Below are positions 33,301-56,134 of a stretch of 64,000 nucleotides of DNA, piece by piece. Location: assembly GCA_023634235.1 (NCBI GenBank), contig JAMKCF010000008.1, forward strand, positions 5,763,676 through 5,827,675, in the 5' to 3' direction. The stretch comes from Pisaster brevispinus (Eukaryota; Echinodermata; Asteroidea; Forcipulatida; Asteriidae). Position numbers and translations under genes: made by a program. The notes under the pieces were generated by a model. The model saw only the letters and a list, made by a program, of their open reading frames with translations, was not told the DNA's origin and did no database searches. The first letter of the stretch is position 1; each line of letters begins with the position of its first letter.

Positions 33301-33342
33301 TTCCAGAAAAATTTCCAATTGACGTCATTAATTTTGTCAACC

Positions 33343-35076: not shown

Positions 35077-35568
35077 ACGTCTTTTCTCAGTGATCTGTCC
35101 AAAGAAAGTCATTAAAAAACGGGATACATACAAAAATCTGACTGCTACATTTTCACTTTCGGATAAACAAGATTTTATTTTAGTTATAATCAGTGAAAAG
35201 TGGGGGGGGGGCAGACTTGGCATTTCCCTTATCTAAAATGACTTTCTTTGGAGTAATCGTTGAGTGAATACTGAACTGATCGATTTTAAAAGCTTTTGGA
35301 TCCCAATACTTTGTGGGGGGGGGGGGGGCACGTGTTTTTAGATCCAAATACTTGATCTTGGCTTGTGCTTTTACTATTTTTGTTCATGACTTTTCAATCG
35401 CTTTTTAACATTTATCAGCAGCTGTTTTTGTGTGATCGAGCAATTCCAGTCTGTCCCAACATCTGAGAAAGCTAACTCTACCATCGAGGGTCTCGGAGTG
35501 AAGTTGAACGAAAAACAGAATCACACTACTCTGAGGAGCTCACCTGTTAGTGATGAAGAAAGCTGTGA

Positions 35569-36666
35569 GATGAGGTAGAAGTTGATCAAGAGTGGAGACA
35601 CCTCAGAATAGAACCAGTTGATGGAGAGACATCCCCAGCGGTGACATCCCCAGAGGTGGATGACGGCAAGGTGTGCACCATATTTTACAGGTAAAAATCA
35701 ATACCTACTTTTGTCTCTTTTGAGAACCATATATTTTCTATTTTTAATACTTTTGATCAAAAGTGAACATGCTTTAACTTCTCTTTAAAAAAAAAGGTTT
35801 TTTTAATACAAATTATTTTAACATGTTTTTCTAATATCGTCAACAGTTTTCTAACTAAACTCAGTATTTCAAGTTTAATTTTATTAAGAATTAATTAAGA
35901 TACAGTTTTACTTCCTTGACGATGAGAAGCGAACAAGCTTATAGGTTTGTTTTGTTTTGTTGTTGTTGTTTTTGTTTTTGTTTGTTGGTGTGTTCGTTTG
36001 TTTGTTTGTTGTTGATGGTGGTGGGGGTTTTGTTTTGTTTTGTTTGTTCTTCTTTTTTGAGGGGGGAGGGGCGTGGACAGCGGCGTAGCCATGACTTTTT
36101 CAGTATGTGGGGGAGCGCATTACTTGTGGGGGCCCAAGGGGGATAGGCTTGTCAGTGGTGGGTCATGCTTTTATATTGGAAGGGGGACGCTGCAGGGGGC
36201 CACCATCCTCTTATGTTCGTGGCATTTTGTGGCTGCGGTAGCGATACCGATAACGGCATCCCCCTTTTCTTTTTCCTATTAATTTTTGTGAGCACTATTC
36301 CGATTTTTTTGTGTGGGGTGGCACCTTGGGGTGAGGCCACTGCAAATTTGTGGGGGGGGGGGGGGGAACAGCCCAGCCCCCCTGGTTAGGGGGTGAGGTT
36401 ACAGAATGACAACCCATTATAATGATGTTTGTTAAGACAATAATCAGTTTGCTGTTCCATTTTCACAATCAAAACTTGATAATGAATAACTAATGAATAT
36501 TATTTATTCTTGTTTGTACAGGAGGCAGAAGTCCAGATTGGGCTCATGTGAGCTTTTGGAATATACAAGAAAGGAATGCCGCTCTGCAGGCATCTATAAA
36601 ATGCAACAAGCCTTGCCAGACATTCTGCACCAGACTCTTCCAAGGATACATACTTGTGCTCTGTAG
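35569..36666 (+). CDS. Outer unit, left arm: two phase-matched exons
   Basis: Exon 1 (35,569-35,690) reads DEVEVDQEWRHLRIEPVDGE then TSPAVTSPEVDDGKVCTIFY and ends TTTACAG|gtaaaa in phase 2. Exon 2 (36,522-36,666) follows TTTGTACAG, fits that phase, and reads RQKSRLGSCELLEYTRKECR then SAGIYKMQQALPDILHQTLP and a short tail to TAG. Upstream, another frame (35,440-35,575) reads IEQFQSVPTSEKANSTIEGL then GVKLNEKQNHTTLRSSPVSD; a one-base shift would join it. The right arm keeps the same exons inverted. The intron holds a hAT-like MITE. The product is unknown; no domain is recognised. Confidence 0.4.
36078..36390 (-). mobile_element. hAT-like MITE, left-arm copy
   Basis: It starts CAGCGGCGTAGCCATGACTT and shares CTGCAGGGGGCCACCATCCT and GCACTTGGGGTGAGGCC-type sequence with the inverted right-arm copy at 55,149-55,440. 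Its right terminus is eroded. It occupies the homologous intron in both arms, so it inserted before the arms separated. Confidence 0.7.
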
Positions 36667-36789
36667 AACTTTGGGTGCTTGGGATTACAACTCTTAGAGC
36701 GTAACACCATGAAGGATTTATATCAAGACAATAAGTCTGGCTTCCATTTGATATTGGAAATGCGGATATAAAGGATTCAAAATGTGAGG

Positions 36790-37700
36790 TTTATATAATA
36801 TTAAAGATGTTATTAATTAATAATAAATAAATAAATAAATAAATTAACTAGTAAGTTGGTTGTTGGTATATTAGCTAATTAGGTAAATAATTAAATTGTT
36901 TATTATTCATTGGACTAATTGTTTGTTTGCTCGTTTGTTTTTTGTTGGTTTGTTTCTTTGTTGATATTTTATTTATTTATATATTTACTTGTTTAAATTT
37001 GTATTTGTTTACTTATTTATTATTTATTATAATGTTTTAAGAAAATATATTTATATTTATATTTTGTTACTTTTGTATTTATTATTTATTTATTTAATTG
37101 TTTGTTTGCTCGTTTGTTGGGGTGTTTGTTTGTTTGTTTATATTTTATTTATTAATATTTTATTTATTTACTTATTGATTTTTTATTTTTATTTTTTTAT
37201 TTATTTATTGATTTGTTTTACTCTTTTTATTTATATATTTATTTATTTATAAATTAATTTGTTTAAATTTTTTATTTTTTTAATTATACATAAATATTTA
37301 TATTTTTGTTATATTACTTTTTGTTTATTGATTCTATTTATTTATTTATATAATTACGTATTCATTTATTTATTATTTATTTAATTGCTTGTTTGCTCAT
37401 TTGTTTGTGGGGTTTTTGTTTATTTGTTTGTTTGTTTATATTTTATTTATTTATTTTTTATTTATTTACTTATTGATTGATTTTTGTTATTTTTATTTCA
37501 ATAATTATTTGTTTATTTTTTACTCTTTTTGTTTATGTCTTTATTTACACATTTATTTGTTAAAATTTTTGTTTATTTATTATTTATTATATTTTTAATT
37601 ATATATATTTATATTTGTGTTATTTATATATTTTGTTTATTTATTGATTCTATTTATTTATTTATATATTTACATATTTCTTGATATACATTTGTTTATT
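36790..37700 (+). repeat. T-rich low-complexity block (ATTT/GTTTG)
   Basis: About 900 bp of imperfect TTTATTTATT and TTTGTTTG runs. The right-arm counterpart (54,300-54,600) is only about 300 bp. Long hydrophobic frames here are composition artefacts. Confidence 0.9.
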
Positions 37701-38139
37701 TAAATTGAAGAAGAAAACAATGCAAACACTGAAAAAACACTGTGAAATTTATTATACAAATTTATGTTAATTTTCTAACAGATGTTTGCAAATAAAACTT
37801 CTGATTTATTTGGAAACATCAATTGATATTTCAATTGTAGAAGAAAACAATACAAATGCTTTGAAATAATTTCCTAAAAATGTATGTTATTTTGATTATT
37901 TTTATGAACAATGTTTTAAATAAAGAGATACATTTTCAACATCTAAACTTTCCAGATTTGTTCGTGTTAATTTATTATCTGTCAAACTTGGAAATGTATA
38001 TTTTGTTAAAAACTTCAAATACGAGACACAACAAAATTTAAAATATTAAATTTTTCTTAGTGGAAATTAATCCCATATTATACAGGGGGAAACTTTTTTT
38101 CAGTGGTGGTAGTTTTTATATAACTAATTTCTGTTGCCA

Positions 38140-38205
38140 GAGGGCGCCCTTTACAGACAACAGAGGGCGCCCTTTATAGTCAACAGAGGGCGCCATTTCT
38201 ACTAT
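38140..38205 (+). repeat. Three AGGGCGCC repeats beside the SINE
   Basis: Three spaced copies of CAGAGGGCGCC with palindromic GGGCGCCC cores. The right arm has the inverted equivalents at about 53,790-53,845. Confidence 0.8.
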
Positions 38206-38288
38206 ATATTTTACATGTATCAACGTGTGTTTGTATATACAACACGTGGTTCTAATATTCATCATGGTTAAAAATTATTGGTTTGGTG

Positions 38289-38374
38289 TGGACGCCGATG
38301 GCCTAGCGGACAAGGTCACGCACGGGAAGAGCAAGATCGGAAGACCTGCTTGGGTTCGAATCCCGGCAAGTCAC
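38289..38374 (+). mobile_element. tRNA-derived SINE head, left arm
   Basis: It carries an A box (GATGGCCTAGCGG) and a B box (GGGTTCGAATCCCGGC) 86 bases end to end, resembling class II (Leu/Ser-type) tRNAs. The T stem pairs (TTGGG with CCCGG). It sits at the same inverted position in the right arm, so it is part of the duplicated unit. Called a SINE head, not a functional tRNA, because the acceptor stem does not close. Confidence 0.6.
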
Positions 38375-38549
38375 AAGGTGAGTGGTATTATATGATGTAA
38401 CTAACATGCACTAACTAACACACACTATTAGGCACCACGCACGATGCACAAGGAGGGACAGGCCAGGACGGAGGAAGGAGAGGGGAGGTGGACAGGGGGA
38501 GAGAGAGAAGAGGGGTGGACAATTTTTTTATATTTTCGTAGGGAAAAAA

Positions 38550-38760
38550 AAAAAAAAAAAAAAAAAAGCATGAAAAACCGAAAATTAACGGTCTTTCATT
38601 TTTTTTAATTCGGCTGAAACGGACGCTCGTTAATTATTTTTGATTAAAAAAAAAAAAAAATGTATGAAAAATTGAAAAATTTACGGTCTTTCAATTTTTT
38701 AAAATGGGCTGAAACGCACGCTCGTTAATTATTTTGCATTTTCAATTTTTTTTTTTTTTT
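38550..38760 (-). repeat. Short tandem duplication with A/T runs
   Basis: Two copies of a roughly 115-bp unit (TACGGTCTTTCA...GGCTGAAACGCACGCTCGTTAA) separated by poly-A runs. The same pair is inverted at 53,225-53,420. Confidence 0.8.
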
Positions 38761-38919
38761 AATCACATTTTGTTTGCAAAATTTCCATAAACTTTTCATT
38801 TTGGGGGAATATAAAAGGTTTCCGCCACCCTTTCATGCTTAAAACGATGCTTTAATTACTCTACTACATTAATTACGCATTCTGGTCACACACAAAACTT
38901 TTTAAATTGTTACACAATA

Positions 38920-39504
38920 TTAATCTGCATTTTTGTAAGGCTTTAATTCTTTAAACACCTTATAAAGATGCTTAACTTTATGTCCATACTTTTCCACCAT
39001 TGATTGCACACAAAGTTTAAATTCCTTCTGGTTTAAGGGCCTAAGACATTCTACATTACATTTACAAAAACAACATTTTAGTTTCAACTAAAAAAAGTAA
39101 CATTTTCGATGTTTAAAGGGCACATTTAAATTTGCAAATAATTGATCCCATGATTTACAGAAAATTACAACTTGATTCTGGAAAGGAAAAACTTTAATCA
39201 AATTTTACAACTTTAGTCCAGCGATAGACTTGACTGTATGGTAACACACTAACGCTTTAAAATATCTTATCTTTAATTAACTCTATGGATTTTTAGTTCA
39301 CAAGGCAATAATAGTCTGTTACTATGTTCATGTGTTACTGTGAGTCTGTGTTGTTCATTGGAGCCAGGGCACCAGACAAAAATGGCTACTGACTGATTTA
39401 TTAAAGTTTTAAGAGCATCCGTTTTTTTAAAGTGTAGAATTTGCATAGTGGACAGCAAACATGTTTCTTTACTTTACCCATCATACCACCAAGCAAACGT
39501 GTGC
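38920..39504 (-). CDS. Inner unit, left arm: last two exon-like blocks
   Basis: Block 1 (39,504 to about 39,273) follows an acceptor (CTTGTAG|GCACACG) and encodes CCPLCKFYTL, then, after a frameshift, KTLINQSVAIFVWCPGSNEQ and VTHEHSNRLLL. Block 2 (39,087-38,920) follows TTTTTTTAG and reads LKLKCCFCKCNVECLRPLNQ, KEFKLCVQSMVEKYGHKVKH and LYKVFKELKPYKNAD before TAA, with no break in 55 codons. The right arm keeps both. C-x2-C pairs (CPLC, CFCKC) suggest a small zinc-binding protein; that is inference. Confidence 0.45.
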
Positions 39505-40113
39505 CTACAAGTAAAAAAAACTTTACGGCTAGGTCAACACTAATAACTATACATCTAACGAACAAGGACATCATACATGTAGCTGATCTAGTTGAGTCTA
39601 GATGTTGCAGGTTGTTGTTTCAGTGATCAGTTTCGAAGAGACGTTAATGATTACAGATGACACACGGTCCCTTTAGATATGATACATTTGCATAACGGAG
39701 AACAAATTTGTTTCTTACTTTATCTTACACTTCATAGCACTCTAAAACCTCATCAAACTTGCATCTACAAGTACCAATAATAATGGCTAGGTCAACACAA
39801 AACATCTACACAAACGAACGAGGACATTATATAGATGATCTAATTGAGTTTGTTTTGATAATAATGTTGTAACAGCTTGTTGGTTCAAAAAATTAAGGAC
39901 CGTGATCAGTTCTGATTATACAGATGATACACAGTCCCTTTAGATATGACACACTTTTAATTTTGATCGAATCTAGTTGAAAGTACATAAATGCAATAAA
40001 ACAGCAGCAGTTATAACAACGTATACACTAAAGGTCTGTTTACATTATACAAGACATTGTCAGAATACTTTTTCCCACTTTTGTAGTCGTTAAAAATCTT
40101 CTTGGCATACATA

Positions 40114-40842
40114 CAGTCGACTCTCGTTAATACGAGGTCCGCCGGACTGGCCCGTTTTCTTATGGCACTATTTACATGTACATGTACACACAGGTTGTCA
40201 TAGTGCATGCACTACACACGTGTCTAGGCTAGAACGGGGCGGTTTGCTTCCTAGTACAGTTCTTACGAGCATCCTGTTCACAAAAATATCAATGATAAAT
40301 GCATTTTTATTGACTATGATCATAGAAATTTAATATTTTGTATAACTCAAGATAAAAATCATAGCAAAGTCATGTCAAACTTGACGTTCATGTGACCATG
40401 ATGTGACAGATTCGATACTGCGTAGCTCCTATGCTGAACGTTGTTTTCGCTGGTAGCCGTCAGCGTGTAAGCGAAGTAGCATATCAAGCATAAGTTACCA
40501 GCGAAAAGTTTCTGGTTTTCGGATCGGACAGAACCGTGTAGACGGTCCGATCCGATAAATAGTTTGGCATCAAGAATGTTATTTCCAAACCTTGACTGAA
40601 CAGTAAGCTTTTATGGAACAATTATTTTCAGATCTCGCTACAAAAGTATGAAAAACAATACATTTTGTCATCTGAGTAGCTGCAAAAATACCTCGTATTA
40701 TCTGTGTTCTCGTTACGACCGTGCTCGTATCTTCCGCTTTTTAAGACATTGAAACACGCATGGGAAAGTTCGGGACGGGTGAAATACCTCGTATTAACCG
40801 GCGTCTCGTATCTTACGAGCTCGTATTAACGAGATTCGACTG
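40114..40842. mobile_element. pogo/Tigger-like non-autonomous element
   Basis: Termini are CAGTCGACTCTCGTTAATAC and, in complement, CAGTCGAATCTCGTTAATAC. Flanks are TA on both sides. The right palindrome arm at about 52,100 has the uninterrupted site (CATACATATACTATATGC), matching removal of the element plus one TA with one mismatch. The interior holds hairpins (GGATCGGAC with GTCCGATCC) but no transposase frame. Confidence 0.85.
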
Positions 40843-40983
40843 TATACTGTATGCTTAATTACAGTCGTTGGTGCATGTGGTTTTAAAGAATCACATGAGG
40901 ACTAGTAGTGAGGGCGATGATGTCCTGTAAATTTGGTTTAAACAGGCCCTTTTACAATGTGTATTATTAACGTACAAGCCTAC

Positions 40984-41155
40984 CTCAATATTCCAGAATT
41001 CTATAAGTTACAAATTTGAGATCGCTTGATGCAGAGAGATGACGACATAATTGAATTCATGTTTAAGACGAGAGCCAAGTGTTCTCTTTAGCTGAGCTTG
41101 TTGTGTATCTCTCGTTAGAACTGGGGTGTTTAATTGTCAGATCATCTTGAATGTA
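40984..41155 (-). other. Amplified exon-like module, left copy 1
   Basis: Between an acceptor-like TTTTATTGCAG and a donor-like TTGAG|gta, this aligns with 42,885-43,057, 45,366-45,543 and the single right-arm copy 51,904-52,087. Frames resemble MRDAQTQLKRSLGVHLNHEF, but each copy has its own frameshifts, so coding is uncertain. Confidence 0.4.
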
Positions 41156-41386
41156 CTGCAATAAAAACCCAAAGAAGATGTATGCATCAACTTACTAAAG
41201 CCAAGGATCAACAACTTTTTATAGAATTCTTTTAGCTGTAATGAATCTTTAAAACCAAATTAGGCATGTTCTGTTTTCAGCAACTCTATCAACAACCTTC
41301 AACTCTAAGTGCAAGAGCGAAAGACAGGGTAGGGGTGCTGATAAGGAAGAAGACAGATATACACTGATAGGATCCAGAGAGAAAAG

Positions 41387-42865
41387 CTATATGTCAAAAT
41401 GGCAGAAACCTGAGATACAGTTTGGATGAATGGGGGAGATGTATATTGGTGTAATTGGATTGACAAAGTACATGGTACTATAAAAGGAGTAACATGTTGA
41501 GGGATGATCCATAGATACATCAACGTGGGCTGAATATTTGGGATTGACACAGAATGACACTAGAAGGGGTAACATTCTATGGGAGGATCCAGCATGATAG
41601 AAAAGTGGGGTGCAAATGGAATTGATACAGTCAGGCACTAGAAGGGGTAACTTGTTGGGGGAGGATCCAGAGTGACAGAAAGGTGGGATGCAATTGGAAT
41701 TGATACAGTCAGGCACTAGAAGGGGTAACATTCTATGGGAGGATCCAGAGTGATAGAAAAGTGGGGTGCAAATGGAATTGATACAGTCAGGCACTAGAAG
41801 GGGTAACTTGTTGGGGGAGGATCCAGAGTGACAGAAAGGTGGGATGCAATTGGAATTGATACAGTCAGGCACTAGAAGGGGTAACATTCTATGGGAGGAT
41901 CCAGAGTGATAGAAAAGTGGGGTGCAAATGGAATTGATACAGTCAGGCACTAGAAGGGGTAACTTGTTGGGGGAGGATCCAGAGTGACAGAAAGGTGGGA
42001 TGCAATTGGAATTGATACAGTCAGCCACTAGAAGGGGTAACATTCAATGGGAGGATCCAGAGTGATAGAAAAGTGGGGTGCAAATGGAATTGATACAGTC
42101 AGGCACTAGAAGGGGTAACTTGTTGGGGGAGGATCCAGAGTGACAGAAAGGTGGGATGCAATTGGAATTGATACAGTCAGGCACTAGAAGGGGTAACATT
42201 CTATGGGAGGATCCAGAGTGATAGAAAAGTGGGGTGCAAATGGAACTGATACAGTCAGGCACTAGAAGGGGTAACTTGTTGGGGGAGGATCCAGAGTGAC
42301 AGAAAGGTGGGATGCAATTGGAATTGATACAGTCAGGCACTAGAAGGGGTAACATTCTATGGGAGGATCCAGAGTGATAGAAAAGTGGGGTGCAAATGGA
42401 ATTGATACAGTCAGGCACTAGAAGGGGTAACTTGTTGGGGGAGGATCCAGAGTGACAGAAAGGTGGGATGCAATTGGAATTGATACAGTCAGGCACTAAA
42501 AGGGGTAACATTCTATGGGAGGATCCAGAGTGATAGAAAAGTGGGGTGCAAATGGAATTGATACAGTCAGGCACTAGAAAGGGTAACTTGTTGGGGGAGG
42601 ATCCAGAGTAACAGAAAGATGGGATGCAATTGGAATTGATACAGTCAGGCACTAGAAGGGGTACCATTTTATGGGAGGATCCAGAGTGATAGAAAAGTGG
42701 GGTGCAAATGGAATTGATACAGTCAGGCACTAGAAAGGGTAACTTGTTGGGGGAGGATCCAGAGTAACAGAAAGATGGGATGCAATTGGAATTGATACAG
42801 TCAGGCACTAGAAGGGGTACCATTTTATGGGAGGATCCAGAGTGATAGAAAAGTGGCCGGTGCAA
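41387..42865 (-). CDS. 26-residue-repeat open frames (doubtful CDS)
   Basis: Two abutting - strand frames (218 and 273 codons, separated by one stop near 42,044) encode repeats of HSGSSHRMLPLLVPDCINSN alternating with HSGSSPNKLPLLVPDCINSI plus CTPLFY or CIPPFC. The DNA unit is 78 bp, a multiple of three, so openness is partly forced. They lie on the sense strand of the inner unit, downstream of its WSLC exon, so the array could be intron or a repeat-coding exon. Confidence 0.2.
41555..42857 (+). repeat. 78-bp minisatellite, 156-bp dimer type
   Basis: About 16 monomers, each with GGATCCAGAGTGA, AATTGATACAGTCAGGCACT and AGAAGGGGTAAC. Two variants (TTGTTGGGGGAG and ATTCTATGGGAG ends) alternate strictly, giving a 156-bp higher-order repeat with very little divergence. 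Confidence 0.95.
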
Positions 42866-42884
42866 TTGGAATTAACAATTTTAC

Positions 42885-43057
42885 CTCAATATTCCAGAAT
42901 TCTTTAAGATACAGATTTGAGGTTTCTTGATGCAGAGAGATGATGACGTAGAACTTTGAATTCATGGTTAAGATGGAAGCCAAGTGGTCTCTTCAGCTGA
43001 GTTTGTGCATCTCTCATTTGAAAGGATGTGATTAATTGTCAGATAATCTTGAATGTA
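42885..43057 (-). other. Amplified exon-like module, left copy 2
   Basis: Same borders and content as 40,984-41,155, followed by the intron-like block (TATGCATACAATTACTCC...TTTCAGAAA) and then minisatellite. Confidence 0.4.
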
Positions 43058-43194
43058 CTGCAATAAAAACCCAAAGAAGATGTATGCATACAATTACTCC
43101 TGCTAAGGATCAACAACTTTTATAACAGTCTTTGGGCTGTGATGAATCTTCAAAACCACATCCGGCATGTTCTGTTTTCAGAAATTGTATCTAC

Positions 43195-45300
43195 AGTATG
43201 GCACTAGAAGGGGTAAAATGTTGGGGGAGGATCCAGAGGGACAGCAAAGTGGGATGCAATTGGAATTTATACAGTAGGGCAATAGGAGGGGTAACATATT
43301 GGGGGAGGATCAGAGTGGCAGTAAAATGGAGCAATTGGAATTGATACAGTCAGCCACTAGAAGGGGTAACATTTTATGGGAGGATCCAGAGTGAAAGAAA
43401 AGTGGGGTGCAATTGCAATTCATACAGTAAGGAATAGAAGGGGTAACATGTTGGGGAGGATCAGAGTGGCAGTAAAGTGGGATGCAATTGGAATTGATAC
43501 AGTCAGGCACTAGAAGGGGTAACATTTTATGGGAGGATCCAGAGACACAGAAAAGTAGGATGCATGTTTGGGATTGAAACAGTATGGAACTGAAGGGGTA
43601 ACATTTTATGGGAGGATCCAGAGTGGAAGAAAAGTGGGTTGCATGTTTGGGATTGAAATAGAATGGCCAATAGAAGGGGTGAAATGTTGGAGGTGGATCA
43701 GAGTGTCAGAAAAGTGGGATGCAATTGCAATTCATACAGTCAGCCAATAGAAGGGGTAACATTTTATGGGAGGATCCTAAGTGACAGAAAAGTGAGGTGC
43801 AATTGCAATTCGTAAAGAAAGGCAATAGAAGGGGTAACATGTTGGGAGAGAATCCAGAGTGACGTCAGCAAAGTGGGGTGCAATTGCAAATCATACAGTA
43901 AGGCAATAGAAGGGGTAACATTTTATGGGAGGATCCAGAGTGATAGAAAAGTGGGATGCATGTTTGGGATTAAAACAGAATGGCACTAGAAGGGGTAACA
44001 TTTTATGGGAGGATCCAGAGTGATAGAAAAGTGGGATGCAATTGGAATTGATACAGTCAGGCACTAGAAGGGGTAACATTTTATGGGAGGATCCAAAGTG
44101 ACACAAAAGTGGGGTGCAATTGGAATTGCTACAGTCAGGCACTAGAAGGAATAACATTTTATGGGAGGATCCAGAGTGACACAAAAGTGGGGTGCAATTG
44201 GAATTGATACAGTCAGGCACTAGAAGGGGTAACATTTTATGGGAGGATCCAGAGTGATAGAAAAGTGGGATGCAAATGGAATTGATACAGTCATGCACTA
44301 GAAGGGGTAACATTTTATGGGAGGATCCAAAGTGACACAAAAGTGGGGTGCATTTGGAATTGTTACAGTCAGGCACTAGAAGGGGTAACATTTTATGGGA
44401 GGATCCAGAGTGATAGAAAAGTGGGATGCAAATGGAATTGATACAGTCAGGCACTAGAAGGGGTAACATTTTATGGGAGGATCCAAAGTGACACAAAAGT
44501 GGGGTGCAATTGGAATTGTTACAGTCAGGCACTAGAAGGAATAACATTTTATGGGAGGATCCAGAGTGACACAAAAGTGGGGTGCAATTGGAATTGATAC
44601 AGTCAGGCACTAGAAGGGGTAACATTTTATGAGAGGATCCAGTGTGATAGAAAAGTGGGATGCAATTGGAATTGATACAGTCAGGCACTATAAGGAATAA
44701 CATTTTATGTGAGGATCCAGAGTGACACAAAAGTGGGGTGCAATTGGAATTGATACATTCAGGCACTAGAAGGGGTAACATTTTATGGGAGGATCCAGAG
44801 TGATAGAAAAGTGGGATGCAATTGAAGTTGTTACAGTCAGGCACTAGAAGGGGTAACATTTTATGGGAGGATCCAGAGTGACAGAAAAGTGGGATGCATG
44901 TTTGGGATTAAAATGGTATGGCAATAGAAAGGGTAACATGATGGGGAGGATCCAGAGTGACAGCAAAGTGGGGTGGAATTGGAATTGATCTACAGTAAAG
45001 CAATAGAAGGGGTAACATTTTAGGAGAAAATCAGAGGGACAGGAAAGTGGGATGCAATTGGAATTGTTACAGTAATGCAATAGAAGGGACATTTTATGGG
45101 GGGGATCCAGAGTGACAGAAAAGTGGGATGCATTTTTGTGATTGAAACAGTATGGCACTAGAAAGGGTAACATTTTATGGGAGAATCTAGAGTGATAGAA
45201 AAGTGGGATGCAATTGGAATCGATACAGTCAGGCAATAGAAGGGGTAACATGTTGGGAGGGGATCCAGAGTGACAGAAAAGTGGGGTGCACGATTGGGAT
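43195..45300 (+). repeat. 78-bp minisatellite, diverged array
   Basis: About 27 monomers of the same unit with more variation (TGCATGTTTGGGATTGAAAC, GACACAAAAGTGGGG, GACAGCAAAGTGGGG types). The - strand stays open for 322 codons at 43,891-44,859 and 135 codons at 44,844-45,251. Confidence 0.95.
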
Positions 45301-46525: not shown

Positions 46526-46910
46526 AAAAAGGTTTACAGAAAGGAAAGATTTGAGCAAAATGAAAATCTCAATGCAGGCAGTAATAATTAAGCATTGAAT
46601 GCACAGGTGGCCTCACACTGGGTTCTTAACCCAATTTAATACAACCGTCTAATTCAATGAAAACCTGCATACAGTGAGAACGACTTTAAGTTTTTTAACA
46701 CCAAAAATGGAAGTTTCCTTATAATGATTTATCAATCAGATCTTTAAGAGGCTTGGTCTAATTTCCAGCTAATCTGACCCTAAATAGCTATTTTTATACA
46801 TTTGAGAAAGTTATGAGCAGTCGTTTAATGTATTGCACGAAAAAAACCTGCAAATAATAAGTGGTAGTAAATTAAAACCTAGAAATTAGTTGAGATCCCG
46901 ACATTGTTTC

Positions 46911-47150
46911 GCGATGGGCCAAAAAGTGCGCGACACTCAACGGTTGTGCCTCCGCACGCGCACTATTAGATTACATTCAGTACCGGTATGTATTGATTGC
47001 ATTACGAGTAAATTAAGCTTGCGCGCCACGTGTATGTTTTTACACTTCTTACCGTGTTTATATCACACGTTTAATCATGGCCATGTGATCAGCTCTCGAC
47101 CAATCAGAATGGATAAACTGTCTCGGGTATTTATGAATATGAGTTTAAAG
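46911..47150. other. Left-arm-specific insertion of about 240 bp
   Basis: The right arm runs directly from CCCGACATTGT to ATCATGATTTAATG where the left arm has these extra bases. No terminal repeats are obvious. It includes CpG-rich sequence (GTGCGCGACACTCAACGG, TTGCGCGCCACGTG) unlike its surroundings. Confidence 0.55.
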
Positions 47151-47648
47151 CCATGATTTGCTTTCTTGTTTCAACCTAGTTCGTCAGGTTGCTTTTGCTT
47201 TTTTGTTTGTCTCATATAGTTTCTTTAATTTCCTTTGAATGGTGTTCATTTGAAATTCAAATAATTACTTGTACTTGTAGGGCCTTTATTTGTAATGAAA
47301 ATAAATGTTGAGTTGAGTTGAAGTTTAATTGGTTTACTAGATTTGTTTACTGCCAGGCACAATAGCAAAAGTTTAGTGTTTTTTGTAATGTTTAGCCTAA
47401 TGCCATAAATCCATTGTTTCACAGGAATTCCCCTAGATTAGACAGTATCCATCACTCTCACCAGCTAATGGCATAACGGATAGCGGTTATTTAAATCATG
47501 TGAATGATGAGTGTGTGTGGCCAGAATGTCTTGTGTGCCATTTGGCATTTCATTCCGTAGCGATGGGCTTGTGATGGTTGAACTTGTTTTGTAACTGGTC
47601 AAAAACACTGACTGAGTTTGCACAGGGTTAGGACTAAACCAGTCAGGA

Positions 47649-47922
47649 CTACAGTTCAATTGTTGTAGTTGTACACACAATATACATAAAATCATCACTG
47701 TCACTCTGTGTTAGCAGTATCACCTCGCTCGATCTATAATCTGGACTGTCTACGACTCGAGGGACTGTGTGTGAGTTTGTTTGTGGCACAACAAGCAGCC
47801 AGAGACATTGAACTATTTTAAAGAAACTAGTGACAATATGACCTGTGTGCAGGACTGCGTCACAAATAGCAACGACAAGTGACATGTCTACCTCCCTCAG
47901 ATGCTCTGTCTGTCTCTCTCCG
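47649..47922 (-). CDS. Inner unit exon-like block, left arm
   Basis: It follows an acceptor (GGTTACACAG|CGGAGAG) shared with the right arm. The frame reads SGERQTEHLREVDMSLVVAI then CDAVLHTGHIVTSFFKIVQC and runs to the stop near 47,649. The right arm has AVLHTSFIITSFFENS in the equivalent place. Entered from exon 1, however, a different frame would be read unless a donor at GGAG|gtagac (47,891) is used, so which part is coding is unclear. Confidence 0.3.
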
Positions 47923-48158
47923 CTGTGTAACCAAAACACTACTTTGACGTGAGTACGGACTACATGTTGTTAATTTAATAGTATACAGTCATTCAGTCAG
48001 AACAAAAATTAACTTGCTGCCAAATGTTGTCCTTTTTTAGAAAATCTAAACACATAGATCATTGATGATACACGTCAAATGACCTATCAACTATTTCCTT
48101 AGATTACAGTGTAAAAAAACCTTAAAATTTGAATCCGTACTTACTCAGATCGAGTTTA

Positions 48159-48200
48159 CATTTCAATTTGAAGACACACTACATACACGTCGTATGCAGA
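48159..48200 (-). other. Inner unit first exon, left arm, start codon followed by stop
   Basis: The ATG at 48,161-48,159 (complement) is followed directly by TAA. The downstream donor sequence GTAAGTACGG and about 100 bases of upstream sequence match the right arm (49,656). The left copy therefore looks inactive as a start. Confidence 0.45.
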
Positions 48201-48310
48201 CGACAGCTCAATGTTTATTATTGTGCAATGCGTTCTGTGACGCATGTGCAGCAAATGATGCAAAGTGAGAGGGCGCTCGTCTTGAACCGGCTCTTTTCAG
48301 AGCCAACACT

Positions 48311-49538
48311 AGGAAGAGATTTTGCGCATGGTTGTACCCGCAAGGTTACTACAGTTACTTCTTATTTTCCACACCATGCAAAGCTTCATATATGACCGAT
48401 GAACTGTCTTATTATTTTATTTTGTTGTATAGTTTTAATTTTCTTTTTGAAAAGTTGCCTATTATTAAGATACCCAAGTTATTGCCCTCACCATGTCCGT
48501 TTTTTATTTACTTTACCCCCCCCCCAAAAGGGAACAAACCAAGAAACAAACACAAAAATACACATACAAAAAACCAACCAAACCCGCACTTTTTTGAAGG
48601 TTTAAAGAGTGTGCATTAACACTCGTAAGGGTAAAGAGATAAAATAAAATGTCACATTGCATGCACATAATGGTTAATGGTGGTAAACTCAGAGGAGCCC
48701 TTTGAATAAAATCCTGCTTTAATGCAATAGTTTTTAGAGAAATGAATAAAACAATTGGTTTTGATCTTGCAAGTAAAAACCTCAATGTTTGAAAACAATG
48801 AACACAAGGTTTTTCCCACAACTTTCTCGTGATTAAATAATGTCAGGCCCAATTTCATGGGCTGTGCTTATGCCGAACTTTGCGCTTACGATCATTATTC
48901 TCTGCTAGCGCCGAATTTCTGAGCTAGCTGTGTACGTAAGCGAAGAATGCCGACTAGTAACGTTGAGTACACACGCGCACAAGCCAAAATTCCCTGCTTA
49001 TGACATGAAATATGCTTGACGTAAGCTCAGAATTCCCTGCTTCCGTAAGCGCCGCTGCCCAATTTCATAGAGCTGCCGGCTACTTTTGTGCTTACAAGTT
49101 ACTGCTGTGCAATTTCCATTTCATAGCGCTGCTGTGACCGTAAGTACACGCAAAAGGGAGTGCTAAATTCCGTTGCAATTAAAATGCGTGACGTACCAAT
49201 GCAATACATGGTGATCGCGCAAGCTGACTGCGTAACGTTTCTTGCTAACCTGTGAAGTAGGACGCTCAAGCGGCAATTTTTTCTGCTATTAGCACGAAAA
49301 TTTGCTTACCGTTAACCAGCGCTATGAAATTGGACCCCGACCGACTTGGAAGGAAAAAATAGTCTGGTGCCATTGTGAAACAATATTAATTTTAAGTCTG
49401 AAATTACAGTGAGGGCATTTGCAAAGAGCAATGGCCTCCCTTTGGTTAAAAACAGTTACTGGAATACTGGTTTTGAAAAAAGAGAGATTGCAACCTTTAT
49501 AAAAATAATGTTTTTAACACAAGACAGTATATTGTTTC
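48311..49538. promoter_or_regulatory. Palindrome centre, possible bidirectional promoter
   Basis: This roughly 1.2-kb spacer separates the two divergent first exons (ATGs 1,495 bases apart). Immediately outside it, both arms share about 120 bases upstream of the ATG, including GAGCTGTCGTCTGC and a GGGCGCCCTCWCTTTG-like block. A GGGCCC-family MITE fills 48,846-49,338. No TATA box is convincing. Confidence 0.35.
48846..49338. mobile_element. GGGCCC-family MITE pair at the palindrome centre
   Basis: It begins GGCCCAATTTCATGGGCTG and ends AGCGCTATGAAATTGGACCC, with an internal terminus at about 49,057 (CCCAATTTCATAGAGCTG). It is absent from the arms and present only once. Confidence 0.7.
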
Positions 49539-49655
49539 AAGAGAGGGCGCCCTCACTTTGCCCCATTTAATTTGCTGCGTAGCGTCCGGGGCCGTAGAGT
49601 GATTTAATAACATTGAGCTGTCGTCTGCTTACACGACGTGTGTCTTCAAGTTGAA

Positions 49656-49676
49656 ATGTTTTCATCCGAAACTCTG
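49656..49676 (+). CDS. Inner unit first coding exon, right arm
   Basis: ATG at 49,656 begins MFSSETL and reaches a strong donor CTCTG|gtaagtacg at 49,676/49,677. The next shared acceptor is CACACAG|CGGAGAG at 49,852/49,853. In the right arm that following exon meets a stop (GTC TGA) after a 16-base insertion relative to the left arm, so the first exons may be partly untranslated. Confidence 0.35.
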
Positions 49677-50277
49677 GTAAGTACGGGTTTTATGTTGAGT
49701 TTTTACATTGTTATGTATGGCAATGGTTTATAGATCATTTGCGACGTGTATCTATGTGTTAACATTGTCTAAAAGGGACAGCTTTTGGGGCAGCAAGTTT
49801 TGTTTTTACTGTCCCGCCGGGCCCCCGCCATCCCTCCCGTCTCCACACACAGCGGAGAGTGACGGACAGAGCGTCTGGTGACGTTGACAGAGTCTGAGGG
49901 AGGTAGACATCTTACATACGTAGTAGTACGAAGTCGTTGCTGTTTGTGGTGTCTACCATGTTTACTGCAGTCCTGCACACTAGCTTTATTATCACAAGTT
50001 TCTTTGAAAATAGTTTAATGTCTCTGCTCTGCTTGTTGTGCCACAAACTAAACAAACTCACAGAGTCACAGTCCCTCAAGTCGTAGTGTAGACAATCCAC
50101 AGATATCGATCAAGCAACGTGACACTTGTGCTGAAAGTAACAGTAATGATTGTGTGTATTAAAATTGTGTTTACAACTACAACAATCAAACTCTAGCCCT
50201 GACTAGTTTAGTCCCGACTCTCTGCAAACTCAGTCAGTGTTTTTGACCAGTTCCACAACAACTTAAACAACCTAGCC

Positions 50278-50371
50278 CACCTTGTTGGGCTGCTATGGCT
50301 CTATGATAGTAATGACGACTATGAATGATAAGACCAATGTTAAAAGAGAGCAATAACAGCCCAACAAGGTG
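50278..50371. mobile_element. Small MITE with perfect 15-bp terminal repeats
   Basis: CACCTTGTTGGGCTG at 50,278-50,292 is the exact complement of 50,357-50,371. It is absent from the left arm (about 47,590), so it inserted after the arms formed. No target duplication is evident. Confidence 0.75.
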
Positions 50372-51200
50372 TGCTAACAACAACCGTATCGCAACAAGCC
50401 CATCGCTACGAAATGAAATGGTGCACAATGCAAGACATTCTGACCATACCGAGTCATATTTCACCTGATTTAAATAGTTGCTATCCATTATGCCGTCAGC
50501 TGATGAGAGTGATGGATACTTTCTAGGAGAATTCGTGTGAAACAATGGATTTAGGGCAAGGCATTTAACAATTAAACATTACAAAAAGCAACTTACCAAT
50601 TTTGATATTGTACCTGGCAGTGGCAGCAACCAAACTTGCTAAACCAACTCAACATCTATTGCAAATATACAAGTTAGTATAGAAAATTCAAACGAACAAA
50701 GATGTATTAACGAAAGAAAGGATTATTATGCCTATATGAGACAAACAAACAAAGCAAATGGGACCTTGTGAACTAGGTTGTAACAAGACATTAAATCATG
50801 ATACAATGTCGGGGTCCCAACAATTAATTTTTAAATTTCTATTTACTACCACTTATCATTTGCAGATTGTTTTCATGCAGTACCTTAAATGACGGCTCAT
50901 AACTTTCTCAAATGTATAAAATAGCTATTTAAAATATGAATATAAATTTTGGGGTCAGATTAGCCAAAGATTTGATGCAGTATCTTTATGATCTGATTTG
51001 TTAATAAATCATTGAGCTTGGAAACTTAAATTTGTGCACGCTGTATGAAATTTTGTATTGAATTAGATTGTTGTATATAGATTAGAAGAACCCAGTGAAG
51101 CCACAGGTGCACACTCAATGCTGAATAATTACTGCAACAGCCTGCATTAAAATTTCCATTTTGCTAACTTTTTTGTTTTTATATACATTTTTTTCCACAG

Positions 51201-51292
51201 AATATTCTGGTCCTTGTGCAGAAAGTTCCTGCAAGGTGATTCGAAGAATAAGGAATCATCAGCTGAAACTTCATCATTCTTTGGAAGTTCTG
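51201..51292 (+). CDS. Inner unit exon (WSLC), right arm, intact
   Basis: The acceptor TTTTTTTCCACAG| and donor AGTTCTG|gtgagt bound 92 nt. The open frame reads IFWSLCRKFLQGDSKNKESS and AETSSFFGSSG. Both splice sites and most residues are shared with the left arm (46,432-46,525), where the frame is broken. The product is unknown. Confidence 0.45.
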
Positions 51293-51331
51293 GTGAGTTA
51301 ATTAAAATATCTTTAAAATGCAACACTATTT

Positions 51332-51784
51332 TTGATCAAAACTGAACATCCCTCTTTGCTCTTATTTACCTTGCAGCCCACCCCACATCCCCTTATTGCT
51401 ACCATCCTTCATCCCAAACACCCATCCCCATTTTGCTGCCACTCTGGATCCTCCCCCAACATGTTACCCATTTGCATCCCATTTTGGTCCCATACTTTAA
51501 AACATACCACATACCTGCAGGAAACAATACTGAGTGCTTTGAGACGCCCAGCGGGTGTGATAAAGCCCTTTATTATTATTATTGTATTATTACCCCACTT
51601 TGCTGTCTCGCTGGATCATCCCCCAACATGTTACCCATTCGCATCCCATTTTGTTGTCACTCCGGGTCCTCCCCCAACCCCTTCTTGTGCCATACTGTAT
51701 GAATCCCAAACATTCATCCCACTTTGTTGTTACATTGGATCCTCCCCCAACATGTTACACCTTCTAGTGTCAAACAGTAAATAA
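51332..51784 (+). CDS. 150-codon frame over right-arm minisatellite (doubtful CDS)
   Basis: This frame runs through about five diverged 78-bp monomers (CCHSGSSPNMLP-type residues) and an inserted simple-repeat/SINE piece (TTATTATTATTATTG). It is on the sense strand of the inner unit, 40 bases beyond the WSLC exon donor. Its left-arm relatives are open in the same relative frame. Intron or repeat-coding exon cannot be decided from sequence. Confidence 0.2.
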   Translation: MIKTEHPSLLLFTLQPTPHPLIATILHPKHPSPFCCHSGSSPNMLPICIPFWSHTLKHTTYLQETILSALRRPAGVIKPFIIIIVLLPHFAVSLDHPPTCYPFASHFVVTPGPPPTPSCAILYESQTFIPLCCYIGSSPNMLHLLVSNSK

Positions 51785-51903
51785 AGTTTCTGAAAGCAGG
51801 ACATGCCTGTGGTTGTGAAGATTCATCACAGCCCAAAGACTGTTATAACAAGTTGTTGATGGCTGGAGTTTATGCATATATCTTCTTTGGGTTTATGTTG
51901 CAG

Positions 51904-52087
51904 TACATGTACATTCAAGATATTCGAGATAATCTGCCAATTAAACGCCTCAGTGCTCATGAGAGATGCACAAGCTCGGCTGAAGAGAACACTTGGCGTC
52001 CGTCTTAACCACAACTTAAACTACGTCATCTTTTCTCTGCATCAAGCAACCTCAAATCTGTAACTTATAGAATTCTGGGATATTGAG
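51904..52087 (+). other. Exon-like module, single right-arm copy
   Basis: Borders are TTTATGTTGCAG|TACATG and GATATTGAG|gtaggc. The frame includes LMRDAQARLKRTLGVRLNHN then LNYVIFSLHQATSNL. It is the template-like counterpart of three amplified left-arm copies. Confidence 0.4.
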
Positions 52088-52480
52088 GTAGGCTTGCATA
52101 TAGTATATGTATGCCAAGAAGATTTTTAACCAGTACAAAAGTGAAAAAGTATTCTGACAATGTCTTGTATAATGTAAACGGACCTTTACTTTATACATTG
52201 TTATTACTGCTGCTGTTTTATTGCATTTAGATACTTTCAACTACATGCAGATTTGAGAAAAATGCAAACAAAACTGGTGTTAATAGTGTGTCATATCTAA
52301 AGGGACTGTGCATCATCTGTTCGCATAAAATGTATCTTCGACACAGATCACTAAAACAACAAGCTGCTACAGCATCTTATATTTTCAGAACAAACTCTGT
52401 TAGATCAGCTATAATGTCCTTGTTCGTTAGATGTATACTTATTAGCGTTGACCTAGCCTTAAAGAATGTTTTACTTTTAG

Positions 52481-53059
52481 GCACACGTTTGCTTAGTGCT
52501 ATGATGGGTAAAGTAAAGAAACAAGTTTGGTGTCCACTATGCGAATTCTACACTTTAAAAAACGGACGTTTTCCTCATATCCTTAAAACTTTAATAAATC
52601 AGTCAGTAGCCATTTTTGTCTGGTGCCCTGGCTCTAATGAACAACACAGTCTCACAGTGACACATGAACATAGTAACAGACTATTATTGCCTCATGAACT
52701 AAAAATCCATAGAGTTAAAGATAAGATATTTTGAAGTGTTAGTGTGTTACCATACAGTGAAAGCTATCGCTGGACTAAAGTTGTAAAATTTGATTAAAGT
52801 TTTTCCTTTCCAGAACTAAGTTGTAATTTTCTGTAAATCATGGGATCAATTATTTGCAAATTTTAATGTGCCTTTTAGACATCGTAAATGTTACTTTTTT
52901 TAGTTGAAACTAAAATGTTGTTTTTGTAAATGTAATGTAGAACGTCTTAGGCCCTTAAACCAGAAGGAATTTAAACTCTTTGTGCAATCAATGGTGAAAA
53001 AGTATGGACATAAAGTTAAGCATCTTTATAAGGTGTTTAAAGAAATGTTAAAACCTTAA
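52481..53059 (+). CDS. Inner unit, right arm: terminal exons
   Basis: Exon-like block 1 starts after TTACTTTTAG (52,481) and reads TRLLSAMMGKVKKQVWCPLC, EFYTLKNGRFPHILKTLINQ and SVAIFVWCPGSNEQHSLTVT to a stop at 52,732-52,734. Block 2 (52,904-53,059) follows TTACTTTTTTTAG and reads LKLKCCFCKCNVERLRPLNQ, KEFKLFVQSMVKKYGHKVKH and LYKVFKEMLKP then TAA, 51 codons. Both are kept in the left arm (38,920-39,504), block 2 without interruption. How block 1 splices to block 2 is unclear (a donor-like ATGG|gtaaag lies at about 52,507). C-x2-C motifs and basic residues suggest a small zinc-binding, nucleic-acid-type protein (inference). Confidence 0.45.
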
Positions 53060-53607
53060 AAATGCAGATTAATATTGTGTAACAATTTAAAAAGCTGTGT
53101 GTGTGACCAGAATGCGTAATTTATGTAGTAGAGTAATTTAAGTATCGTTTTAAGCATGAAAGGGTGGCTGAAACCTTTTATATTCCCCCAAAATTGAAAG
53201 TTTATGGTAATTTTGCACAAAAAATTGTGATTTTTTTTTGAAAATGCAAAATAATTAACGTGCGTGCGTTTCAGCCCATTTAATAAAATTGAAAGACCGT
53301 AAATTTTTCATTTTTTCATTTCATTTTTTTTTTTTTTTTAAATCAAAAATAATTAACGAGCGTGCGTTTCAGCCGATTAAAAAAAAATGAAAGACCGTTA
53401 ATTTTCGGTTTTTCATTTTTTTTTTTTTTTTTCCCCCCTACGAAAATTTAAAAAAAATTGTCCACCCCTCTACTCTCTCTCTCCCCCATTCCACCTCCCC
53501 TCACCTTCCTCCGTCCAGGTCTGTCCCTCCTTGCATCGTGCGTTGTGCTTGTTAGTGCGTGTTAGTTAGTGCATGTTAGTTACATCATTATAATACCACT
53601 CACCTTG

Positions 53608-53693
53608 CGACTTGCCGGGATTCGAACCCAAGCAGGTCTCCCATCTTGCTCTCTCCGTGCGCGAACCTGTCCGCTAGGCCATCGGCGCTCCAC
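53608..53693 (-). mobile_element. tRNA-derived SINE head, right arm
   Basis: Inverted counterpart of 38,289-38,374: A box GATGGCCTAGCGG and B box GGGTTCGAATCCCGGC on the - strand. Followed outward by GGGCGCC repeats at 53,790-53,845. Confidence 0.6.
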
Positions 53694-54299
53694 AGCTAAC
53701 CAATAATTTTTAACCTTGATAAATATTAGAACCACGTGTTGTATATTATAAACACACGTTGATACATGTAAAATATATATAGTATAAATGGCGCCCTCTG
53801 TTGACAATGCAGGGCGCCCTCTGTTGTTTTTAAAGGGCGCCCTCTTTGACAAAAATTGGTTATTTAAAACTCCCACCACTGAAAAAAAAGATGTTTCCCC
53901 TTTATAATATGGAGATTTGTTTGAGTTAAATAAATTAAATATTTTATAGATGTTGTCTCTTCGCCATTTGAATTTTTTTAAAGCAGTCTGATTTTGTGCT
54001 CTTCAAGTTTGACAGAAAATAAATGAACACAAACCAATCTGGAAAGTTTAGTTGTTAAAAGTGTCTCTCTTTATTTGAAACATCGCTCATAAAAATATTA
54101 AAATAATAAACAATATATATAATTACTTCAAAGCATTTGTATTGTTTCTTCTACAATTTAAATATAAAAAGATTCAAAGGAATATTGGTATAAACATTTT
54201 CCAACAGATTATTCCAAATAAATCAGAAATTTTATTTTCAAACATCTGGTAGAAATTACCATACAATTGTATAATTAATTTCAAAGTGTTTGCATTGTT

Positions 54300-54610
54300 T
54301 TTTCTTTTATTTGAATCAATAAATACAATTTTAAAATATTAAAATTTAAAAGGATAGAAATAATTCTATAAATAAATTACAAATTAAAAATTAATTAATA
54401 ATAATAAATAAATATATAAATAAATAAAGAGTTTGAAAATTTTAAAAATTAATAAAAAATAAGTTGATGAATACAATATAAACAAACAAATAAACAAACA
54501 AACAAATTTAAAAAAATTGTACTTTATTTATTAGTTAACTAATTTACCAACCGACTAACTAACTAATTAATTAATTAATTAGTTAACTAATCAATAACGT
54601 CTTATTTCCT
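54300..54610 (-). repeat. A-rich low-complexity block
   Basis: AATAAATA and AACAAACA runs, the short counterpart of the T-rich expansion at 36,790-37,700. Confidence 0.85.
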
Positions 54611-54931
54611 TATTCGAATCCTTTGTACCTGCATATCCAATATCAAACGGAAGCCAGACTTATTGTCTTGATATAAATCCTTCATGGTGTAACGCTCTAA
54701 GAGTTGTAATCCCAAGCACCCAAAGTTCTACAGAGCACAAGTATGTATCCTTGGAAGAGTCTGGTGCAGAATGTCAGGTGTTCCATCCAGGTTATCATCA
54801 GGTGTTCCATCTTCCATCTGGGTTATCATCAACATGACTGCTACATTGTTCATGGTATATATTCTGCAGAGGATCTGCTTTTCAAGAGCATTAAATACTG
54901 CAGCATATCAGTTATGCAAGGCTTGTTGTAG

Positions 54932-55661
54932 TTAATAGATGGCTGCAAAGCGGCAATCCTTTCTTGTTGTAGAGATTCCAAAGCTCTCTGTGAGACCAAT
55001 CTGGACTTTCCTGTACAAACAAGAATAAATAATATTAGTTAATTCATTCATTATTCAGTAAAGATTGTGAAAAAGGAACAGCAAACTGATTATTGTCTAC
55101 AAGTCACAAATAACATTAGAATGGGTTGTCAATCTGTAACCTCACGGCCAGTGGCGTAGCCAGGTGGGTGGGTGGGGGGCACGTGCCTCCCAAAAAAATT
55201 GCAGTGGCCTCACCCCCAGGTGCCCCTCACAAAAAAAAAATTGCAATAGTGCTCACAAATATGAAAAGGAAAAAGAAAAGGGGGGAAAATGCATATAATC
55301 TAATATAGTGAATGATCGCGATCAGGATTGCTACCGCGGCCACAAAATGGCATAAGAGGATGGTGGCCCCTGCAGCGTCCCCCTTCAAAAGTCCGCCTCC
55401 CCCCCCCCCCAACACTGAAAAAGTCCTGGCTACACCGCTGTCTACAAAAACTCTTTGTTTAAAATAATTAAGCACGTTCACATTTTGATCAAAAGTATTA
55501 AAGAGGGAAAATATGTGGTTCTGAAAAGAGAAAAAAGATAGTATTGATTTTTACCTGTAAATCATGGCGCACACCTTGTTGTCCTTCACCTCTGGGGATG
55601 TCTCTCCATCAACTGGTTCTATTCTGAGGTGTCTCCACTCTTGATCAACTTCTGCCTCATC
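54932..55661 (-). pseudogene. Outer unit, right arm: two exons, truncated
   Basis: Exon 1 (55,661-55,555) reads DEAEVDQEWRHLRIEPVDGE then TSPEVKDNKVCAMIY and ends TTTACAG|gtaaaa in phase 2. Exon 2 starts at 55,010 after TTTGTACAG and reads RKVQIGLTESFGISTTRKDC RFAAIY before TAA at 54,932-54,934, where the left arm has a Lys codon and continues. In another frame exon 2 reads SQRALESLQQERIAALQPSI. The right copy therefore looks truncated relative to the left. Confidence 0.4.
55149..55440 (+). mobile_element. hAT-like MITE, right-arm copy
   Basis: The left end CAGTGGCGTAGCCAGG and the right end (complement CAGCGGTGTAGCCAGG) match at 14 of 16 positions. Length is 292 bp. The flanking 8-mers do not match, so the target duplication has decayed. 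It lies in the outer-unit intron. Confidence 0.75.
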
Positions 55662-56134
55662 TCACAGCTTCATCACTAACAGGTGAGCTCCTCAAAGTAG
55701 TATGACTCTGTTTTTCCTTCAACTTCACTCCGAGACCCTCAAAAGTAGAGTTAGCTTTCTCAGATGTTGGGACAGACTGGACTTGCTCGGAATTCAATCA
55801 CACATAAGCAACTGCTGGGAAAAAGGGATAGAAAAGTCATGAACAAAAATAATAAAAGCACAAGCCAAGATCAAGTATTGTGATTATTGTGATGAAAAAA
55901 TAAAGCTTTTAAAAATGATCAGTTCAGTATTCACTCAACAATTACTCCAAAGAAAGTGACTTTAAATATAGAAGGGAAGATGCCAAGTCTGCCCCCTCCC
56001 CCCCCCCCAATTTTTTCACTCCTTATAACTAAAATAAAATCTTGTTTACTGAAAGTGGAAATGCAGCAGTCAGAATTTTGTATCTACCCCATTTCTTAAA
56101 TGAATTTCTTTGGACAGACCACTGAGAAAAGACT

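What the first reader, a model, noticed from the sequence alone, without database searches (positions are those of the whole stretch)
35077..56134. A 21-kb imperfect palindrome whose arms carry the same ordered exons, SINE, MITE and minisatellite
More than ten landmarks appear in both arms in mirrored order around a centre of about 1.2 kb. Each arm combines exon-like blocks with conserved splice sites, a tRNA-derived SINE head, a hAT-like MITE and a 78-bp minisatellite. Drosophila FB and sea urchin TU foldback elements also have long inverted arms with tandem repeats, but I know of none this long with spliced exons in both arms. It could be a giant foldback element, or an inverted duplication of an unknown gene family locus.
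Basis: partly seen in the sequence, partly recalled or inferred. Interest (0 to 1): 0.85.

Follow-up and report, generated by a model that had tools for sequence, protein, structure and literature searches.

The report
Head-to-head pair of repeated gene-like units
The 21-kb "palindrome" is real, but it looks like two copies of a long unit that is repeated many times in this genome, placed head to head around a shared 1.4-kb centre, rather than a giant jumping foldback element.

Summary
The inverted duplication is real: inverted L covers 6,148 of 6,529 R bases, 0 in 20 of 20 shuffles. Searching the whole genome (549.7 Mb) changes the interpretation. Each arm is a copy of a dispersed unit at least about 21 kb long; three block queries gave 172-188 candidate places each, 40 scored. 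Ten other copies read over 20 kb are single. The finding's outer edges are not ends of the unit and no target-site duplication was seen at the edges tried, so it does not pass as a foldback transposon. But the head-to-head layout recurs: two more pairs with inner edges 1.2-1.4 kb apart, a third with a truncated left arm, centres related, three more inferred from positions, no tail-to-tail pair in the lists. Arms group by side across loci, so pairs were copied as pairs. Splice-bounded segments run outward from the inner edges; 42 of 42 exon-3 copies have stops in every frame. Best reading: a divergent pair of noncoding or 5'-leader transcription units in a large unnamed family, probably sharing a central promoter (untested).

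The parts
35079..48220 (-). Left arm: inner ~13 kb of a long repeated unit reading outward (minus strand)
   Evidence: Inverted alignment to R; colinear with other genomic copies
22421..35078 (-). Outward continuation of the left unit beyond the finding's edge; about 1.6 kb missing at 35,079 relative to copy C5
   Evidence: Colinear chains with C22 and C5; mirrored block 22,421-22,834
49605..56223 (+). Right arm: shorter copy of the unit reading outward; matches other copies to 56,223, 90 bp beyond the finding's edge
   Evidence: 8 of 10 copies match R up to 56,223
57689..58173 (+). Further piece of the unit in the right copy, after a deletion relative to C22 and C3c
   Evidence: Colinear and same orientation in C22 and C3c, not found in C5; inverted in L at 22,421-22,834
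48221..49604 (.). Centre between the two inner edges; candidate shared promoter region (CpG o/e 0.55-1.11 in 500-bp bins, window 0.55)
   Evidence: related centres at C8:3.94, C4:13.12, C8:4.90 Mb
49605..49676 (+). Exon-1-like segment, right copy; donor GTAAGTACGG follows at 49,677 (5' end inferred)
   Evidence: GT donor in 22 of 22 aligned inner edges from 19 loci
48145..48220 (-). Exon-1-like segment, left copy, with donor GTAAGTACGG (5' end inferred)
51201..51292 (+). Exon-2-like block (right)
   Evidence: Found in 10 of 21 sources; both splice dinucleotides in 9 of those 10, C3c lost both; the region is missing from 5 of 10 singles
51904..52087 (+). Exon-3-like block (right); three copies in the left arm
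   Evidence: AG acceptor in 48 of 48 aligned copies from 15 of 21 sources; stops in all three frames in 42 of 42 pattern-matched copies
40975..45828 (-). Left arm: three exon-3 copies and the 78-bp minisatellite array (41,484-45,304)
52500..53450 (+). Highly similar block with a 117-aa residual ORF (mirrors about 38,554-39,500)
   Evidence: R to singles 5.4% different over 52,500-53,400, against 14.2% in the inner part
40113..40843 (.). Insertion in the left copy with terminal inverted repeats ACAGTCGAxTCTCGTTAATACGAG
   Evidence: Absent from 6 of 6 other copies compared (L003-L008); ends
50273..50391 (.). About 120-bp self-complementary insertion in the right copy, absent from L and from the 9 singles that cover it; the C8:3.94 copy aligns through it
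   Evidence: weak mir-1791 match below gathering score

Best explanation
The feature is a head-to-head (divergent) pair of members of a large repeated family. Each member is a unit of at least about 21 kb that begins with a conserved exon-1-like segment and splice donor and continues outward through further splice-bounded, noncoding exon-like blocks. Shown: the inverted duplication, the family, recurrence of the pair with a related centre, and arms grouping by side across loci. Inferred: an old inverted duplication of one unit (fold-back or template switching) made the pair; the centre acts as a two-way promoter; transcripts are spliced and are noncoding or long 5' leaders; later whole-pair copying spread some pairs, while single members were amplified separately, partly as same-orientation series. 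Whether the pair arose once or more than once is not settled. In the window the left copy expanded its exon-3/minisatellite array and the right copy lost sequence, giving unequal arms.
For: R arm 6,148/6,529 bases covered by inverted L, 0 in 20 shuffles. Three block queries: 172, 188 and 175 candidate places, 40 scored in each. Ten copies read over 20 kb show no inverted match above 120 bits; 9 of 10 match R from 49,609, 8 of 10 up to 56,223. C4:13.12 and C8:4.90 Mb have inverted inner edges about 1.36 and 1.22 kb apart, window 1.38 kb; at C8:3.94 Mb the left inner edge is missing but the centre and an inverted piece of the middle block are there. Centres align in the same orientation (C4 vs C8:4.90 83%; window vs C8:3.94 71-75%; window vs C4 short pieces of 72-83%). 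Positions: 6 close opposite-strand neighbours, all divergent, none convergent, plus C8:4.90. Tree: win_R with C8:3.94_R and C4_R with C8:4.90_R, each 100%. Exon-1 donor GT 22/22, exon 2 9/10, exon 3 acceptor 48/48, stops in all frames 42/42.
Against: No RNA data were available: transcription, splicing and promoter activity are untested. Exon-like segments are not clearly better conserved than their surroundings. Exon 2 was found in 10 of 21 sources only, and its region is missing from 5 of the 10 singles (C22, C3b, C9, C40, C13). C4-type left and right arms join at 86%, which would fit a second, independent pair formation. Only 40 of 172-188 candidates were scored in each query, so the share of paired units is unknown; three of the seven pairs rest on positions alone. 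The unit's outer end was not reached, so a coding gene further out cannot be excluded.
Confidence: 0.6

Rival explanations
1. A giant foldback transposon: the two arms are its terminal inverted repeats and the 1.4-kb centre its middle domain; it moves as one piece.
For: Long inverted arms with tandem repeats, no Pfam match in the centre's ORFs looked at, and further head-to-head copies with related centres.
Against: 10 of 10 copies read over 20 kb are single; the outer edges are internal to a longer unit; no shared word of 4 bp or more in the 20-bp flanks.
Confidence: 0.05
2. A large non-autonomous dispersed transposon (for example Helitron-like, carrying captured host exons); the palindrome is two insertions in opposite orientation.
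For: Many dispersed copies with a common inner edge; no convincing coding signature.
Against: The centres of four pairs are related and co-oriented, which independent insertions would not give. Same-orientation series on C5, C30 and C39, 116-528 kb between scored copies, look more like segmental duplication. Helitron termini were not tested.
Confidence: 0.2
3. Leader part of a large protein-coding gene family whose coding exons lie further outward; the palindrome is a divergent gene pair of ordinary kind.
For: Splice signals in noncoding exons fit 5' leader exons; the unit is longer than the region seen.
Against: No Pfam match above its curated cut-off on the left unit's sense strand over window 1-29,600 or in the R arm. 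The left unit's sense strand at 29,601-48,220 was not scanned frame by frame, and L could be truncated.
Confidence: 0.2
4. Assembly artefact (inverted haplotig or chimera).
For: None found beyond a 99.9% local duplication nearby.
Against: Arms differ by about 20% and group with different loci in the trees.
Confidence: 0.03

Closest known systems
Foldback transposons (Drosophila FB, Tetris, sea urchin TU)
   Same: Long inverted arms with internal tandem repeats around a middle domain (Tetris: passages of PMC4079207; FB and TU details recalled)
   Different: Arms are not terminal repeats of a discrete element; the copies read over 20 kb are single; no TSD seen; the unit continues outside
Inverted segmental duplications formed by fold-back or template switching
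   Same: Two copies head to head with a short centre (PMC3907307 seen only as a search listing)
   Different: Here the pair is old (about 20% divergence) and related pairs exist at other loci
Divergent gene pairs with a bidirectional promoter
   Same: First-exon-like segments back to back, reading outward, CpG-richer centre
   Different: Both members belong to one repeated family and no coding sequence was found; transcription not shown

Membership tests
Foldback transposon | Inverted arms end at the element's outer termini | tested here: not met
   L continues to at least 22,421, R resumes at 57,689; other copies extend further
Foldback transposon | Target-site duplication flanking the arms | tested here: not met
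   No shared word of 4 bp or more between the 20-bp flanks, with either right-hand edge (56,133 or 56,223)
Foldback transposon | Dispersed copies share the palindromic form | tested here: inconclusive
   10 of 10 copies read over 20 kb single; 4 pairs at sequence level including the window, 3 by position
Foldback transposon | Tandem repeats inside the arms | tested here: met
   78-bp array in L, few units in R
Inverted segmental duplication | Two homologous copies over 1 kb in inverted orientation, above chance | tested here: met
Inverted segmental duplication | Identity of at least 90% (usual catalogue cut-off, recalled) | tested here: not met
   77.4% over 6,002 columns; an old duplication
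Divergent gene pair with bidirectional promoter | Outward-facing first exons with donors in both arms | tested here: met
   GT donor in both arms and in 22 of 22 aligned inner edges; that they are exons is inferred
Divergent gene pair with bidirectional promoter | Transcription of both sides from the centre | not testable with these tools
   No RNA data
Helitron-like element | Characteristic termini and insertion between A and T | not tested

The most novel reading that the evidence does not exclude
A large family of long, spliced noncoding transcription units whose founding form is a divergent pair driven from one shared centre. Because the arms are complementary, read-through or antisense transcripts of a pair could form very long double-stranded RNA and feed a small-RNA pathway, which might explain why pairs are kept and copied as pairs.
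Probability: 0.1. Interest if true: 0.7.

Novelty: new member of a known kind. Interest (0 to 1): 0.38.

Why it matters
A multi-copy family with a recurring head-to-head pair offers replicates for asking whether such pairs keep a working shared promoter, and how inverted pairs are copied as blocks. As a structure it is an ordinary kind of event (an old inverted duplication within a repeat family); what is unusual is the size of the family, the length of the unit and the recurrence of the pair.

Tried and rejected
Arm-to-arm gene conversion as the cause of the patchy identity: mostly not needed, because in most 100-bp bins L-to-R identity is close to that of the single copies to R (exceptions such as the bin at 49,801). 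It is not excluded: in the tree of the highly similar block L and R are sisters at 73%, and over 53,400-53,900 and 55,790-56,223 L is nearer to R (8.0%, 9.8%) than the singles are on average (10.6%, 11.6%). The 92-96% block is similar across all 12 copies: R-S 5.4%, S-S 5.1%, against 14.2% and 5.1% in the inner part. Constraint that ended when the family expanded, or family-wide conversion of that block, remain open.

Coding origin: a codon-position scan over 12 copies gave no convincing frame; the residual ORFs in the block show changes at all codon positions, with a third-position lean in the second (8, 12, 18) that I count as weak. The one protein hit (P0001, 106 aa, 84% identity over 64% of the query, E 1.7e-49, on a 1.3-kb contig) is the same ORF; the DNA of the block is 90.7-93.3% like R in the ten singles. 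Pfam scans of R on both strands, of the right flank on both strands, of two plus frames of 22,000-36,000, and of the minus strand of 1-29,600 gave no match above its curated cut-off (weak sub-threshold matches); of nine typed ORFs one gave a match above cut-off, a reverse transcriptase at 32,056-32,490. The L arm was not scanned in all frames. PDB: 0 hits for 52,201-53,100 in one frame. Rfam: nothing at gathering score inside the arms; two sub-threshold matches in R. Paper searches listed no report of this family; five searches cannot show that none exists. PMC13431229 (passages) had nothing to use.

Not done: the genome search with the centre (48,221-49,604) and with one outward piece did not complete, so the number of pairs and the unit's length stay open.
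Full report
1. Observation. A self-comparison of the window shows a long inverted duplication with arms L 35,079-48,220 and R 49,605-56,133 and a 1.38-kb centre. The best colinear chain has 9 blocks, 6,002 columns, 77.4% identity. Inverted L covers 6,148 of 6,529 bases of R; 20 of 20 dinucleotide shuffles of R gave none, and five 6.5-kb segments of the left part of the window gave 0, 89, 68, 0 and 211 bases. L is longer mainly because of an expanded array of 78-bp units carrying exon-3 copies, 41,484-45,304, plus a 0.73-kb insertion with inverted ends at 40,113-40,843 that 6 of 6 other copies compared lack.

2. Edges. The reported edges are not boundaries of the unit. Compared with copies on C22 and C5, L is colinear far past 35,079, to about 22,536 (the end of the C22 sequence held), with about 1.6 kb missing at 35,079 relative to C5. 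R matches other copies to 56,223 (8 of 10) and again at 57,689-58,173 in C3c (57,688-57,959 in C22; not found in C5), and this block is mirrored in L at 22,421-22,834. No target-site duplication was seen at the edges tried.

3. The family. The window lies at G000:C8:5,763,676-5,827,675 in a 549.7-Mb assembly of 512 contigs. Three non-overlapping queries from the inner, middle and outer parts of the arm gave 188, 172 and 175 candidate places, of which 40 were scored in each. Ten copies (C22, five on C3, C9, C40, C5, C13), read over 20 kb, are colinear and show no inverted stretch of R above 120 bits (nine of them include at least 3.4 kb upstream of the inner edge, C3e does not show the inner edge). 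On C5, C30, C39 and C56 the scored copies lie in one orientation (on C27 three of four), 116-528 kb apart on C5, C30 and C39 by the inner-edge query.

4. Recurring pairs. Of the 12 loci, which carry up to 1.5 kb of flank, four show the paired form: the window; C4:13.12 Mb and C8:4.90 Mb, with inverted inner edges about 1.36 and 1.22 kb apart; and C8:3.94 Mb, where the centre is homologous down to window 48,256 and an inverted piece of the middle block follows, so the left inner edge is missing. Five show no inverted partner in the flank (C3 three times, C23, C2). Three have too little upstream sequence to tell (C21:10.68 and two on C39). The centres align in the same orientation: C4 with C8:4.90 at 83%, the window with C8:3.94 at 71-75%, the window with C4 in short pieces. 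Merging the positions of the three queries gives six close opposite-strand neighbours (window, C4, C8:3.94, C21:9.81, C25:5.31, C36:0.53 Mb), all divergent, none convergent; C8:4.90 is the seventh pair. C21, C25 and C36 rest on positions only.

5. History. Trees of inner edges group the window's right arm with that of C8:3.94 (100%), the right arms of C4 and C8:4.90 (100%), and the left arms of C4 and C8:4.90 with C2 (100%), while the window's left arm goes with the singles (100%) (one search gives the same groups on the shorter piece). So pairs were copied as pairs, and the inner parts of the arms have not homogenised. C4-type left and right arms join with 86% support, which leaves open a second origin; shared parts of the centre favour one origin. 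The window's L arm is uneven: 14.0% from singles in the inner part but 6-7% from 52,500-equivalent outward. Some exchange between L and R further out is not excluded (see Tried and rejected).

6. Anatomy. Reading outward: an exon-1-like segment with donor (GT in 22 of 22 aligned inner edges from 19 loci); exon 2 (found in 10 of 21 sources; both splice dinucleotides in 9 of these 10, C3c lost both; the region is missing from 5 of the 10 singles); exon 3, multiplied in many copies (acceptor AG in 48 of 48 aligned copies from 15 of 21 sources; 42 copies found by an AG..GT pattern in 12 sources, 129 or 166-184 bases long, all with stops in all three frames). These exon-3 copies are therefore not internal coding exons. 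The centre is CpG-richer than the window average, 0.55-1.11 in 500-bp bins against 0.55, though a stretch at 46.5-47.0 kb is as rich. No Pfam match above cut-off, PDB or Rfam match names the unit in the parts scanned. On the inward strand, a block at about 55,558-55,819 (mirrored at about 35,437-35,690) also has splice-like ends and a broken reading frame, perhaps remains of another gene.

7. Mechanism. Most likely an inverted duplication of one unit produced a divergent pair with a shared promoter region, copied later as a pair and, separately, as singles. Shown: structure, family, recurrence, grouping. Inferred: transcription, splicing, promoter sharing, and the fold-back or template-switch origin.

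8. Known systems. The foldback transposon test fails on outer ends and target-site duplication. As an inverted segmental duplication it is ordinary in kind but old, and unusual in being a recurring pair inside a large family.

Noticed in passing
22623-25217 and 26511-29105; 25208-26504 and 30600-31898: A very recent local tandem duplication of about 3.9 kb (99.9% and 99.0% identity), the second copy split by a ~1.5-kb insertion holding a TATT repeat. Could be real or a haplotype assembly duplication.
   Followed up: no
32056-32490 (minus): Fragment of a reverse transcriptase (Pfam RVT_1, E 1.7e-17), by recall LINE-type.
   Followed up: no
19092-19164 (minus) and 14140-14297: tRNA-like Rfam match (33.6 bits) inside a repeat found inverted at 14,140-14,297; probably a tRNA-derived SINE.
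   Followed up: no
13073-13819: 36-bp minisatellite, 20.8 copies, open in three forward frames.
   Followed up: no
52500-53400 and the mirrored block near 38554-39500: Block in which R, L and single copies are all about 5-6% apart although R is 14% from singles in the inner part; constraint that ended, or family-wide conversion.
   Followed up: partly
55558-55819 (minus) and about 35437-35690 (plus): Exon-like block on the inward strand with conserved acceptor and donor in both arms and a broken reading frame; about half of its changes fall in every third base.
   Followed up: partly
50273-50391: About 120-bp self-complementary insertion in the right copy, weakly like mir-1791 below gathering score.
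   Followed up: no
G000 C5, C39, C30, C27, C56: Series of the unit, mostly in one orientation and with near-equal scores, suggesting large recent segmental arrays.
   Followed up: no
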